Of a stretch of 64,000 nt of DNA, positions 8,077 through 13,481 are shown piece by piece. A model generated the notes under the pieces. That model saw only the letters and a list, made by a program, of their open reading frames with translations. It had not been told where the DNA came from and made no database searches. The position numbers and the translations under genes are program-made. The first letter of the stretch is position 1; the number at the start of each line of letters is the position of its first letter. The stretch comes from Succinivibrio sp. (GTDB lineage: Bacteria; Pseudomonadota; Gammaproteobacteria; Enterobacterales; Succinivibrionaceae). The stretch spans positions 1 to 64,000 of the forward strand of contig JAILLS010000083.1 of NCBI GenBank assembly GCA_024693025.1, in the 5' to 3' direction.

Positions 8077-8595
8077 ATGACAGCACAAAATTCCTATCAG
8101 AGACCCACCAAGGATGAATCCTTTCTGCAGGTGGCGCAGGCCGTGTCCATGCGCTCGACCTGCCTGCGCCGCCGCTATGGAGCGGTAATCGTATCGAGGG
8201 ACGGGCGTATCATCTCCACCGGCTACAACGGCGCTCCGCGCCATCGTGCCAACTGCATTGAGCTGGGAGTCTGCCTAAGACAGCAGCTGCAGATCAAACC
8301 CGGCACCCACTATGAGCTGTGCCGCTCGGTCCATGCCGAGGCCAATGCCATCATCAACGGCGATCCCCTGGAAATCGTCGGCGGTACGCTGTATCTGGTG
8401 GGTACCGAGGCGGCAGACAATCAGCCGACCTCGCAGATCGGCCCCTGCGCCATGTGCCAGAGACTGATCCTCAATGCGCAGATCGCGCGCGTCGTGATGC
8501 GTACTCCCGACGGACAGATTGTCTCCATTGATCCGACCAAGTGGGAGGATGATCTGCCGGAGAATATCAAACAGAAACTGGGCATTCCCGACTAA
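8077..8595 (+). CDS. dCMP deaminase family protein (ComEB-like)
   Basis: CLRRRYGAVIVSRDGRIISTGYNGAPR...SVHAEANAI...GPCAMCQRLILNAQI: HAE and PCxxC zinc motifs. Confidence 0.92.
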   Translation: MTAQNSYQRPTKDESFLQVAQAVSMRSTCLRRRYGAVIVSRDGRIISTGYNGAPRHRANCIELGVCLRQQLQIKPGTHYELCRSVHAEANAIINGDPLEIVGGTLYLVGTEAADNQPTSQIGPCAMCQRLILNAQIARVVMRTPDGQIVSIDPTKWEDDLPENIKQKLGIPD

Positions 8596-9234: not shown

Positions 9235-10104
9235 CTAAGGCTCGTCGACAATCTTAGGCTCCAGATAGGACGGCCGCTCATTGATCTTATCAGGACTGTA
9301 GTTGCGGCGGTCGTTGATATTCATATCGCTGATGGTCGACATATCGCCTGGCGAGAGCTCAAAATCAAAGAGTTTGGAATTACTGATGATCCTCTCCGGT
9401 CTCACCGACTTGGGGATCGCCACCAGCCCACGCTGCAGCGCCCAGCGCAGAATAATCTGAGCGGCATCCTTATGATAGAAATCCCGCATCCCGATAAAGC
9501 GCGGATCATCTATCAGGGTGCGCCCATGTCCGCCCAGCGGAGAATAGGCCTCCACCACAATGCCGCGCGCCTGACAGTAGCCGCACAGCTCCTCCTCCGT
9601 ATTGACCGGATGAATCTCCGTCTGATTGACCTGCGGAGCTCTCAGAATACCTGAGGCAAACAGATCCTCAAGATGATGCTCTCTGAAATTCGAGACGCCG
9701 ATGCAGCGGCACAGGCCTTCATCCTGCAGATGCTCTAAATCCTTATAGGCCTTGACATAATCGCCAAACGGCCAGTGCAAAAGAAGCAGATCCACATATT
9801 TGAGCTGCAGGCGCTCCAGCGAACGCAGCAGGCCTTCACGGGGATTGGCATAGTCAGTCTTCCACAGCTTGGTGGTCACAAAGATCTCCTCGCGCTTCAC
9901 TCCGGAATCAAGAATGCCCCGGCCCACACTGCGCTCATTGCAGTACACGCGTGCCGTGTCGATAAGCCGATATCCAAATTCCAGCGCCGTACGCACGGCC
10001 GAGCGGGTCTCCTCGCCCTGTGCGGCATTGAAGACGCCCAGCCCCAGACGCGGCATTTTGACCCCATTGTTCAGAGTCAGAGTTGATTCAAGGTGCAGAT
10101 CCAT
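9235..10104 (-). CDS. Aldo/keto reductase (AKR5-like)
   Basis: LIDTARVYCNERSVGRGI...LLLHWPFGDY...GVSNF...AIPKSVRPERI. Confidence 0.92.
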   Translation of the reverse strand: MDLHLESTLTLNNGVKMPRLGLGVFNAAQGEETRSAVRTALEFGYRLIDTARVYCNERSVGRGILDSGVKREEIFVTTKLWKTDYANPREGLLRSLERLQLKYVDLLLLHWPFGDYVKAYKDLEHLQDEGLCRCIGVSNFREHHLEDLFASGILRAPQVNQTEIHPVNTEEELCGYCQARGIVVEAYSPLGGHGRTLIDDPRFIGMRDFYHKDAAQIILRWALQRGLVAIPKSVRPERIISNSKLFDFELSPGDMSTISDMNINDRRNYSPDKINERPSYLEPKIVDEP

Positions 10105-10113
10105 GCGTTCCCC

Positions 10114-11100
10114 CTAGGTATTCTTTACAAACTGATAAGCCTGCTCCAGTACCTCTACGCCGGCGCCAGGTCTGGTCATATGTTCTGACAGATAGCGCCT
10201 GTAGCGGCGTGAGCCCGGGCAGGAATTGAACAGATTCAGAGCATGAATGGCCAGATGCTGCAGCTGATGACCTTCACTTAAAAACTGCTCGGCCAGATCC
10301 TCAATCCTTGCAAACACCTCCTCCCGGCTAGGCGGAGGAGCAGGATCATCAAAGAGCATGCTGTCCACCGAGGCGAGCAGATAAGGATTATCAATGATGG
10401 CCCGTCCGAGCATCACGCCATCGACATTGTTCAGATGCTCAAAGCAGCTCTCCAGCGAAATAATGCCCCCGTTGATGGTGAAATAGAGATCGGTAAATTC
10501 CTGCTTGAGCCGATACACGCGCCGATAATCCAAAGGCGGCACGCTGCGGTTCTCCTTAGGCGAGAGCCCCTTAAGCCAGCAGTGGCGGGCATGCAGCACG
10601 ACATGGCGGCAGCCTGAGAAACTGATATTGGCAATGAGCTCGCGGGTAAAATCCTCACTGGCAAATTCATCCACGCCCAGGCGGGTTTTCACCGACACCG
10701 GGATGGTGACCGCCTCCTGCATGGCATACAGACATTCTGAGAGCAGCTGCGGATCTTTCATCATCACCGCACCGAACTGACCTGACTGCACCTTGTCGGA
10801 AGGACAGCCGGCATTGAGATTGATGGCAGAAAAGCCCATACTCTCGCCAATCGCTGCGGCAACAGCCAGTTTTTTGGGATCATTGCCGCCCAGCTGCAGC
10901 GTGCAGGGCAGCTCGTCCTCATGATGCGCGAGCAGCTCAAGCTTTTCATGCACCAGAGCCTCGGCCGCAATCATTTCGGTATAGAGCATGGCCTGTCTGG
11001 TCATCACGCGCGCCAGCCTGCGAAAGGCTGACGTGGTCACATCAACCATCGGTGCGATGGAGAAGAGATCTGCCACACCAAATGGTTCGCCTAACAGCAT
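10114..11100 (-). CDS. dusA: tRNA-dihydrouridine synthase A
   Basis: SIAPMVDVTTSAFRRLAR; NLNAGCPSDKVQSGQFGAVMM; HARHCWLKGLSPKENRSVPPLDY; INGGI. Confidence 0.94.
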   Translation of the reverse strand: MLLGEPFGVADLFSIAPMVDVTTSAFRRLARVMTRQAMLYTEMIAAEALVHEKLELLAHHEDELPCTLQLGGNDPKKLAVAAAIGESMGFSAINLNAGCPSDKVQSGQFGAVMMKDPQLLSECLYAMQEAVTIPVSVKTRLGVDEFASEDFTRELIANISFSGCRHVVLHARHCWLKGLSPKENRSVPPLDYRRVYRLKQEFTDLYFTINGGIISLESCFEHLNNVDGVMLGRAIIDNPYLLASVDSMLFDDPAPPPSREEVFARIEDLAEQFLSEGHQLQHLAIHALNLFNSCPGSRRYRRYLSEHMTRPGAGVEVLEQAYQFVKNT

Positions 11101-11109
11101 CGGCAGATC

Positions 11110-12399
11110 CTAACTGTTAATCCAGCGGAAGGCTTCGGTATCACAGACAGACTTTACCGCATCATCCACCCACGCGGTAGAGAAAATCGGCAGATCACAT
11201 GTGATTTTACCGATCAGCTCCTGCAGAGCCGCCGTACGCTGTTCATCCGGATTCACCAGCATCTGCGCAATCGCCTCGCCAAGCCTGGACATCGCGATCG
11301 CGGAGACGCCCCGGGTCGTTGCCGGCAGCGTGGAGAAGCGGATGGAATCAAACTTGATGCGCGCATCCGAGGTCAGAAGATCCGTGGTCCTCACCTTGAT
11401 GCCGTTCTGGAACAGAAGCTCCTGCGCGCCACGCGCACTCAGAGCCGTGCTCTTGCTGTCCACCATCACAAGATGCGTCTGCGTGCCGCTGGCTAAAACC
11501 TTGACACCGCCGCGGGTCAGGCCTTCGGCAAAAGCCTCGGCATTCTCGACCACCGCTCTGGCATAGGCCCTGTGATTTTCGGACTTGAGCTCAATCATGC
11601 GGCAGGCAAGCGCTGCCAGCGACGGGGTCAGCAGCCCCTTGTGTCCTGCCGTGGTCACGGTCCGGTCAATGAGATTGCCAAGATCCGAACTGCACAGGAT
11701 CACCGCAGACTGCGGTCCCTGCAGAGAGCCAAAGGTCCTGAAGGTTACCACATCCGCATAAGGTACAGGTGAGCTCAAAACGCCTGCGGCGATGAGACCG
11801 GCATTCTGTGAGATATCACACCACAGATAGGCCCCTGCCGCCTTGGCAATGGCACTGAGCCTGGCATAATCGATGGATAAAGGATAGTTGATCGGGGAGA
11901 CGATGATGAGATGCGGATGACAGTTTAAGGCTTTTTTCTCAATTTCATCGTAGTTTAACAGCTGAGTCTTAGGATCCACGCCGAAGTTTTCAAAGCGATA
12001 GACAAAATTCTCGTTGTTGCAGTGCTCCTTTTTGCGCAGATCAAGCGACATCACGATATCGCCGCGCTGCGTTAAGGCCTGAAACACCACGCGGGAGGCA
12101 CCTTCAATGGTAATAGCCCTGAGATTGGCATGATCGGCCCCGAAAATCTCGCAGATGCGCTTGCAGGTCAGGCCTTCAAGGCCCATGGTGCGGTTAAACT
12201 CGTCCTTGGTGACTGAATTGTTGATGAGCACATTGCCTAAAATGGCCGCACACAGTGGTGAAGTGCTGTTTTCATCAGGAATAAAAGACAGAGATTTATG
12301 TTGATAATCCAGCTTTTTTTCAAAGAAATTAAATAATTCAGGATCTGCCTGTTTTAAGAGATTAAATGGATTCATCCTCACACCCCCTGCCACCCTCAA
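11110..12399 (-). CDS. Serine hydroxymethyltransferase-like protein, predicted PLP-lysine-deficient
   Basis: SHMT-like blocks: FIPDENSTSP, ENFGVDPKTQLLNYDEIEKKALNCHPHLIIVSPINYPLSIDYARLSAIAKAAGAYLWCDISQNAGLIAAGVLSSPVPYADVVTFRTFGSLQGPQSAVIL. At the canonical TTTTHKTLxGPRGG site it reads TFRTFGSLQGPQSA. Confidence 0.75.
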   Translation of the reverse strand: MRVAGGVRMNPFNLLKQADPELFNFFEKKLDYQHKSLSFIPDENSTSPLCAAILGNVLINNSVTKDEFNRTMGLEGLTCKRICEIFGADHANLRAITIEGASRVVFQALTQRGDIVMSLDLRKKEHCNNENFVYRFENFGVDPKTQLLNYDEIEKKALNCHPHLIIVSPINYPLSIDYARLSAIAKAAGAYLWCDISQNAGLIAAGVLSSPVPYADVVTFRTFGSLQGPQSAVILCSSDLGNLIDRTVTTAGHKGLLTPSLAALACRMIELKSENHRAYARAVVENAEAFAEGLTRGGVKVLASGTQTHLVMVDSKSTALSARGAQELLFQNGIKVRTTDLLTSDARIKFDSIRFSTLPATTRGVSAIAMSRLGEAIAQMLVNPDEQRTAALQELIGKITCDLPIFSTAWVDDAVKSVCDTEAFRWINS

Positions 12400-12549
12400 G
12401 CGAATACTTAAGCTCAGCCCTTCAGTTACTTTTATCTTACTAAGATTTTTCAGCTTTTTTCAAAAAAAGACTACAAATTGCAAGATAGCTCTAAAAAAAC
12501 TAGAGCTTAGCATCTGCCAGAGCTTAAGCACGGTCATGGGGAAAAAGCC

Positions 12550-12583
12550 CGAGATCTGCATCCATATGCCGGATGCAGATCCC
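12550..12583 (-). terminator. Terminator-like hairpin downstream of 12588-13481
   Basis: GATCTGCATCC-N7-GGATGCAGATC perfect 11-bp stem; minus-strand T-run beyond (cgggctttttc). Confidence 0.75.
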
Positions 12584-12587
12584 AGGT

Positions 12588-13481
12588 TTAGGCAGGAGTC
12601 TTGGCTTGATCAAGATCTTTTGGTGCCAGTGCAGTCTCATCAGGACTGCTCTTAGAGCTTGCCTTCGGCATCAGACCGAGCCTTGTTCTGGTACGCCTGA
12701 TGCGCTGCAGGATCTCCTGATAGGTCTTAAGCGTGCCGTCTACCGAAAACAGCTGCTGTTTAAGCGCATAGTTCTCTGTCTCGCTCACGCCTCTCTCGCT
12801 CTGGCGCAAAGCCTCCTCTGACTTGTTCTGCAGCAGGCCGTCATGCTTTGGCGCACAGTCTTTATCACTCAGGCCAGAGAGCCTGGCACGCTCGGCCTGA
12901 CGTATTTCCTGCTGATGCACGCGCTCTTCCTCACGGGTCGGCAGATCCTGATACTCTCTGCTCTGAGTGAATTTTGCGGTTGACTTTTCAACCTGCTCTG
13001 TGCGGCGCTGCTGCATCGAGCAGAACTTTAGCCTGTCCTCCTCTTGAATATGCGGATTACTGCTGATGTTCTTTACATTCACATAGGCGGTGGTCAGCCG
13101 GCCTAATTTTAAGGCTGCCACCTCCTCACGGTTCCTGCAGCGCTGCAGAGCGCGCTCATACTGCTTCTGCTCGCATTCTGAGGCAAGCAGATCATTATAG
13201 GTCAGAGGATCGGCCACCCTAAGATACTGCTTTTCAAAAAAAGACAGTTTCCGGCCGCTCTCAAGCTTGGCTTTAATCTCAGTGAGCCGGCGCTCATCCT
13301 GAGGTTTGTCTTCTTTTGCCCTGGCAAGACTGTCCCTGATTTTGGACAAAAGACTGTCAGAGCTTTCCTCACTGACAGCCTGTGCAGATAAAGGCTCAGC
13401 AGAGGCTGCTTTAGCTCTGCATTGCTGCTTCTGCAGCGATACAGTGCCCGCCGTAAAAGCTCGGGTAAGCAAATTCACCAT
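12588..13481 (-). CDS. Hypothetical charged, coiled-coil-rich protein
   Basis: 297-aa ORF with its own downstream hairpin; E/K/R/Q-rich; no signal peptide seen; central LTEIKAKLESGRKLSFFEKQYLRVADPLTYNDLLASECEQKQYERALQRCRNREEVAALK. Confidence 0.7.
   Translation of the reverse strand: MVNLLTRAFTAGTVSLQKQQCRAKAASAEPLSAQAVSEESSDSLLSKIRDSLARAKEDKPQDERRLTEIKAKLESGRKLSFFEKQYLRVADPLTYNDLLASECEQKQYERALQRCRNREEVAALKLGRLTTAYVNVKNISSNPHIQEEDRLKFCSMQQRRTEQVEKSTAKFTQSREYQDLPTREEERVHQQEIRQAERARLSGLSDKDCAPKHDGLLQNKSEEALRQSERGVSETENYALKQQLFSVDGTLKTYQEILQRIRRTRTRLGLMPKASSKSSPDETALAPKDLDQAKTPA

What the first reader, a model, noticed from the sequence alone, without database searches (positions are those of the whole stretch)
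11110..12399. SHMT-fold protein that has lost the PLP-binding lysine
Seen in sequence: where SHMT reads VVTTTTHKTLxGPRGG, this protein reads VVTFRTFGSLQGPQSA, so the catalytic Lys is Gly (codon GGC, plus-strand 11728-11730) and the preceding His is Phe. The SHMT signature SENYTSP is DENSTSP (active-site Tyr replaced), and the cofactor-stacking His in DMAHVAGL appears as Gln (DISQNAGL). Flanking blocks (AGLIAAGVLSSPVPYADVV; IRFSTLPATTRG) are kept and the frame is intact over 429 codons, which argues against simple decay. Known: that Lys forms the internal aldimine needed for canonical SHMT chemistry. Inference: a repurposed SHMT paralogue (regulatory, scaffold or ligand-binding).
Basis: partly seen in the sequence, partly recalled or inferred. 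Interest (0 to 1): 0.72.

Follow-up and report, generated by a model that had tools for sequence, protein, structure and literature searches.

The report
Conserved SHMT paralogue lacking PLP lysine
A group of gut and rumen bacteria (Succinivibrionaceae) carries, beside its normal serine hydroxymethyltransferase, a second copy whose vitamin-B6-binding site has been rebuilt and then strictly preserved, so it should be unable to do the usual chemistry yet is clearly under selection for some other, still unproven job.

Summary
The gene is on the minus strand (ATG 12375 to stop 11110, 421 aa). It is a full-length SHMT-family protein (PF00464, 181 bits; predicted fold closest to SHMT, TM about 0.81) in which the PLP lysine is Gly216. 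The genome also encodes a canonical GlyA. The true catalytic loop (Tyr51/Glu53/Tyr60/61) is missing and the phosphate cup Gly-Ser is Ile-Glu/Asp.

Orthologues occur in 38 of 58 family genomes (8 of 14 genera) and in no other genome of two broad samples. All 26 aligned share Gly216, Gln190, Asp34, Ile90 and an acidic residue 91. dN/dS is 0.02-0.09, the pocket is far more conserved than the core (p = 5e-5), and dusA follows in 33 of 33 assessable loci. This is a clade-specific repurposed SHMT paralogue, probably PLP-free, with a pocket for something else; whether it regulates or catalyses is open. Inactive SHMT paralogues are known (Plasmodium PfSHMTm, Arabidopsis SHM7), so this is a new bacterial variant of a known kind.

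The parts
11110..12375 (-). pseudo-SHMT coding sequence, 421 aa plus stop (upstream in-frame TTG at 12399 less likely to be the start)
   Evidence: ORF and orthologue-supported ATG
11728..11730 (-). Gly216 codon (GGC) in place of the PLP-binding lysine (E. coli K229, Bacillus/Thermus K226)
   Evidence: Gly in 26 of 26 family members
11806..11808 (-). Gln190 codon in place of the His near PLP O3' (E. coli H203); Asp187, which meets the pyridine N in SHMT, is retained three codons upstream
12022..12033 (-). K115-K-E-H118, part of the family motif R-K-x-E-H-C-N: stacking His118 retained, Gly-Gly-His-Leu of SHMT changed to Lys/Arg-Glu-His-Cys; K115 is the only invariant lysine
12103..12111 (-). 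Thr89-Ile90-Glu91, equivalent to the Ser-Gly-Ser/Ala PLP phosphate cup of SHMT (Glu91 codon 12103-12105)
10114..11100 (-). dusA, tRNA dihydrouridine synthase, 9 bp downstream on the same strand
   Evidence: NF008774, 406.6 bits, over cut-off; same-strand downstream gene in 33 of 33 assessable loci
9235..10104 (-). aldo/keto reductase (DkgA-like, below the equivalog cut-off), third gene of the conserved run
   Evidence: 30 loci
12434..12463 (-). promoter-like site TTGAAA-18-TAAGAT upstream of the pseudo-SHMT gene
   Evidence: consensus match only
12548..12586 (-). 17-bp terminator-like hairpin after the upstream gene, separating it from the pseudo-SHMT transcription unit
   Evidence: consensus match only

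Best explanation
Shown: a clade-specific, strongly conserved SHMT-fold paralogue coexists with a normal GlyA. It has lost the Schiff-base lysine, the catalytic Tyr/Glu loop and a PLP-compatible phosphate cup, and has fixed a new set of pocket residues. Inferred: it does not form an internal aldimine and probably does not hold PLP at all. The former cofactor/substrate cavity, still carrying the carboxylate-binding Arg (R346), Asp187, His118 and His301 plus new invariant or near-invariant E91, R95, K115, E117, C119, N163, Q190 and Q219, binds a different small ligand, probably one with a carboxylate. The protein works as a PLP-free ligand-binding pseudoenzyme (sensor or regulator), most plausibly tied to one-carbon/serine metabolism or to the tRNA-modification gene dusA with which it is co-oriented.
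For: Full-length SHMT profile match. AlphaFold model with pLDDT 88.7 and pTM 0.90, nearest to SHMT structures. Canonical GlyA in the same genome. Invariant altered pocket residues in 26 of 26 sequences. Pocket entropy 0.45 against 1.19 bits for the core, p = 5e-5. dN/dS 0.018-0.09 in close pairs, no weaker constraint than on the neighbouring dusA. Present in 38 of 58 family genomes, 8 of 14 genera, with the three misses in positive genera at contig ends or lacking dusA too. Conserved gene order. The phosphate-cup Ser becomes Glu/Asp and the flanking Gly becomes Ile, at positions shown crystallographically to hold the PLP phosphate (PMC10397204). No convincing glycine cleavage P-protein or formate-THF ligase in 23 family genomes, which makes GlyA the likely main 5,10-CH2-THF source and so a plausible regulatory target.
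Against: No biochemical evidence. Lysine-free Bacillus SHMT mutants (K226M, K226Q) were crystallised in complex with serine or glycine (titles), so loss of Lys alone does not rule out PLP binding. Absence of glycine cleavage and formate-THF ligase is common to family members with and without the gene, so it does not single out one-carbon metabolism. Linkage to dusA may be plain synteny: the gap runs from overlap to about 2.4 kb.
Confidence: 0.45

Rival explanations
1. Neofunctionalised enzyme: the rebuilt pocket (R-K-x-E-H-C-N motif, D187, Q190, R346, invariant Cys119) catalyses a new reaction, PLP-independent or using PLP/PMP non-covalently.
For: The pocket is far more conserved than the rest of the protein. 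Potentially catalytic Lys, Glu, His and Cys are invariant within 5 residues. The gene sits in a gene run with an aldo/keto reductase.
Against: No known lysine-free SHMT-family enzyme was found in the literature searched here. No substrate or pathway is indicated. The phosphate cup is acidic, which argues against a phosphate-bearing cofactor.
Confidence: 0.33
2. Dead subunit that forms a hetero-oligomer with the genome's GlyA and tunes it, as proposed for Plasmodium PfSHMTm with PfSHMTc.
For: SHMT active sites are shared across the dimer. A canonical GlyA is present. PfSHMTm precedent. GlyA of the gene-positive genera forms its own well-supported clade with 14 diagnostic substitutions.
Against: Only about 30% identity to GlyA. 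A pure partner need not keep its pocket invariant. The GlyA substitutions may simply reflect lineage divergence. No interface test was run.
Confidence: 0.15
3. A PLP-binding protein after all, with K115 as a migrated Schiff-base lysine, or PLP held non-covalently as a reservoir or sensor.
For: K115 is the only invariant lysine and lies three residues before the stacking His118. Asp187 and His118, which contact the PLP ring in SHMT, are kept.
Against: The phosphate cup is Ile-Glu/Asp instead of Gly-Ser; Tyr51 and the Asn98/His125 network around the Asp are gone. Several gene-positive genomes lack PdxJ, so there is no link to de novo PLP synthesis.
Confidence: 0.06
4. Decaying pseudogene or sequencing artefact.
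For: Loss of catalytic residues; the window lies in a fragmented, 88% complete assembly.
Against: Open frame and the same replacements in isolates such as Succinivibrio dextrinosolvens DSM 3072 and Succinatimonas hippei YIT 12066. dN/dS below 0.1.
Confidence: 0.01

Closest known systems
Canonical serine hydroxymethyltransferase (GlyA, EC 2.1.2.1, PF00464)
   Same: Fold, length, about 30% identity, retained Arg363, Asp200, His126 and Tyr177 equivalents (E. coli numbering)
   Different: No PLP lysine, no Tyr51/Glu53/Tyr61 loop, altered phosphate cup, Ser35 to Asp, His203 to Gln, changed folate loop
Plasmodium falciparum PfSHMTm (PF14_0534)
   Same: SHMT paralogue beside an active SHMT, lacking most active-site residues, recombinant protein inactive (PMC3014972)
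   Different: Eukaryotic, mitochondrial targeting, 18% identity to its active paralogue; the bacterial family keeps a conserved rebuilt pocket
Arabidopsis SHM7/MSA1
   Same: SHMT-family member reported without SHMT-type activity and with a regulatory role (PMC10243980)
   Different: Nuclear plant protein; not compared residue by residue here beyond the fold match to 7qx8
Fluorothreonine transaldolase (TIGR04506)
   Same: SHMT-like domain with a different reaction
   Different: 73 bits against a 650-bit cut-off; to my knowledge it is still PLP-dependent

Membership tests
SHMT family by sequence (PF00464) | Full-length profile match above the curated cut-off | tested here: met
   181 bits against 27, profile positions 1-398 of 399
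SHMT subfamily PRK00011 (NF000586) | Score above 335 bits | tested here: not met
   222.7 bits
SHMT fold | Predicted fold matches solved SHMTs | tested here: met
   TM about 0.81, all of the 50 listed hits are SHMTs
Functional SHMT (EC 2.1.2.1) | PLP Schiff-base lysine | tested here: not met
   Gly216, Gly in 26 of 26 orthologues
Functional SHMT (EC 2.1.2.1) | Catalytic Glu53 and Tyr51/Tyr60/Tyr61 loop | tested here: not met
   YAEGYPGKRYYGG replaced by a shorter variable segment, no invariant residue between 53 and 72; roles from PMC10397204
Functional SHMT (EC 2.1.2.1) | Substrate-carboxylate Arg (R363/R358) | tested here: met
   R346 invariant
Functional SHMT (EC 2.1.2.1) | SHMT activity | not testable with these tools
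   needs an assay
[quoted passage not shown]
   Ile90 in 26 of 26, Glu91 in 25 of 26 with Asp in the other
[quoted passage not shown]
   D187 invariant, but its Asn98/His125 support is lost
SHMT pseudoenzyme (PfSHMTm-like) | Inactive paralogue coexisting with an active one | tested here: inconclusive
   Coexistence with a canonical GlyA shown; inactivity inferred, not assayed

The most novel reading that the evidence does not exclude
A previously undescribed PLP-independent enzyme or metabolite sensor built on the SHMT scaffold, fixed in the Succinivibrio/Succinatimonas/Anaerobiospirillum lineage and transcribed with dusA: a bacterial fold type I protein that abandoned its cofactor while keeping an invariant, rebuilt active site.
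Probability: 0.4. Interest if true: 0.7.

Novelty: new variant of a known kind. Interest (0 to 1): 0.5.

Why it matters
GlyA supplies most one-carbon units in bacteria, and this family appears to lack both the glycine cleavage system and formate-THF ligase. A conserved, cofactor-less sister of GlyA in abundant rumen and gut succinate producers is therefore either a regulator of that bottleneck or a new activity on a very old fold. It is also an annotation trap: it passes the Pfam SHMT cut-off and could be named glycine hydroxymethyltransferase although it cannot do that chemistry by the known mechanism.

Tried and rejected
Decay or artefact: rejected on orthologues and dN/dS. A second lysine at the PLP position: none near it in the alignment; only K115 is invariant. 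Origin by recent duplication of the family's own GlyA: the tree puts all pseudo-SHMTs in one 100/100 clade on a very long stem outside the family GlyA clade, but root and donor are unresolved. Functional link through dusA: gene-negative genera also have dusA, elsewhere in the genome and without the same neighbours, so the protein is not required for DusA. Link to glycine cleavage, PdxJ or formate-THF ligase by presence/absence: no correlation with the gene. Relatives in other taxa: none at family level in samples of 274 Gammaproteobacteria or 399 Pseudomonadota genomes. Phage and plasmid records: the matches listed are only 28-34% identical, and those with annotation are glyA. A viral-contig scan gave no answer. 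Literature searches found no description of this family, within an open-access library only.

Full report
WHAT IS THERE. The finding lies on the minus strand. The frame 12399-11110 is open. The ORF listing start is a TTG at 12399 (429 aa), but the ATG at 12375 gives a 421-aa protein whose N-terminus matches the orthologues. Pfam assigns only PF00464 (SHMT), full length, 181 bits. NCBIfam's SHMT subfamily model scores 222.7 bits against a cut-off of 335, so the protein falls outside the curated GlyA group. The quoted motifs and the GGC codon at 11730-11728 are correct. The genome (2.13 Mb, 129 contigs, 88% complete) also encodes a canonical GlyA (558 bits).

THE ACTIVE SITE. Residue roles are taken from the neutron/X-ray study of Thermus SHMT (PMC10397204); the mapping is by multiple alignment. 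Lost: the Schiff-base Lys (to Gly216); Ser31, which contacts the anion in the substrate site (to Asp34); Gly94-Ser95 of the phosphate cup (to Ile90-Glu/Asp91); Tyr51, Glu53 and Tyr60/61 (loop replaced and shortened); Asn98 (to Ser94) and His125 (in a six-residue deletion), which support the pyridine-N Asp; His200, in the network at O3' (to Gln190). Kept: the pyridine-N Asp (D187), the ring-stacking His (H118), the carboxylate-binding Arg (R346) and the His312 equivalent (H301). The larger losses, the Tyr/Glu loop and the phosphate cup, were not noticed.

CONSERVATION. Searching 60 relatives gave 25 further full or partial orthologues at 49-65% identity, next to GlyA hits near 30%. In the 26-sequence alignment (A1) the replacements listed above are invariant or nearly so. 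Pocket positions have a mean entropy of 0.45 bits against 1.19 for the core; 20,000 random draws gave p = 5e-5 (canonical SHMT pockets are conserved too, but here the altered residues themselves are fixed). Pairwise dN/dS for close pairs is 0.018-0.092 for the pseudo-SHMT, 0.03-0.14 for dusA and 0.01-0.11 for the reductase. The gene is under strong purifying selection.

DISTRIBUTION AND ORIGIN. A scan of named genomes returned 35 loci, all from Succinivibrionaceae or MAGs labelled Aeromonadales, including the isolates Succinivibrio dextrinosolvens DSM 3072, Succinivibrio faecicola AGMB01872, Succinatimonas hippei YIT 12066 and Anaerobiospirillum succiniciproducens DSM 6400. Among 58 genomes of the family, 38 have it, in 8 of 14 genera. 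In the three negatives that belong to positive genera, dusA lies at a contig end (G342, G005) or is also missing (G002), so these are probably assembly gaps. Outside the family, a sample of 274 gammaproteobacterial genomes gave nothing above 245 bits against 686 for the window gene, and a sample of 399 Pseudomonadota genomes gave no hit below 1e-78 other than the window gene. The tree places all pseudo-SHMTs in one clade (100/100) on a long stem, outside the family GlyA clade. Ancient duplication and acquisition from an unsampled lineage cannot be told apart.

CONTEXT. A 17-bp terminator-like hairpin (12586-12548) closes the upstream gene and a promoter-like site lies at 12463-12434, so the pseudo-SHMT is probably the first gene of a unit with dusA (9 bp downstream) and an aldo/keto reductase. 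dusA follows on the same strand in 33 of 36 loci, the other three being short or broken contigs, and the reductase in 30; the gap to dusA runs from overlap to about 2.4 kb. In gene-negative genera dusA sits elsewhere, without these neighbours. Glycine cleavage P-protein and formate-THF ligase gave no convincing hit in 23 family genomes, with or without the gene; the few GDC-P hits are short and near threshold. PdxJ is missing from some gene-positive genomes.

STRUCTURE. AlphaFold2 with A1 gives pLDDT 88.7 and pTM 0.90; the weakest internal region is residues 51-60, where the catalytic loop would be. The 50 best PDB matches listed are all SHMTs.

MECHANISM. Shown: conserved loss of most SHMT catalytic and cofactor groups, with the carboxylate Arg, pyridine-N Asp, stacking His and His301 kept, and fixation of a new polar pocket. 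Inferred: no internal aldimine; PLP probably not bound, because the phosphate cup is acidic; the pocket holds another ligand. Regulator or sensor (about 0.45) and new enzyme (about 0.33) cannot be separated by sequence. A GlyA hetero-oligomer is a weaker option (about 0.15).

KNOWN RELATIVES. Inactive SHMT paralogues are described: PfSHMTm lacks 16 of 21 conserved active-site residues and is inactive as recombinant protein (PMC3014972), and plant SHM7 is reported without SHMT-type activity and with a regulatory role (PMC10243980). I found no description of a bacterial family of this kind in the open-access library, which does not cover most subscription journals. Verdict: real, conserved, a new bacterial variant of a known kind of pseudoenzyme; function unproven.

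Noticed in passing
window 12588-13481 (-): Upstream 297-aa charged protein with no NCBIfam match, followed by a strong terminator-like hairpin.
   Followed up: no
23 Succinivibrionaceae genomes: No convincing glycine cleavage P-protein and no formate-THF ligase in the family sample, suggesting GlyA is the main or only source of 5,10-methylene-THF.
   Followed up: partly
genomes G006, G010, G014, G015, G025, G028, G344: PdxJ not detected, so these members may use another PLP route or salvage.
   Followed up: no
L001, L117, L118, L119, L130 (GlyA of gene-positive genera): 14 GlyA substitutions are fixed in gene-positive genera and absent from the other GlyAs compared; they could reflect interface co-evolution or only lineage divergence.
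   Followed up: partly
window 8077-8595 (+): Small deaminase matching weakly both ComEB and the anti-phage dCTP deaminase model (both far below cut-off).
   Followed up: no
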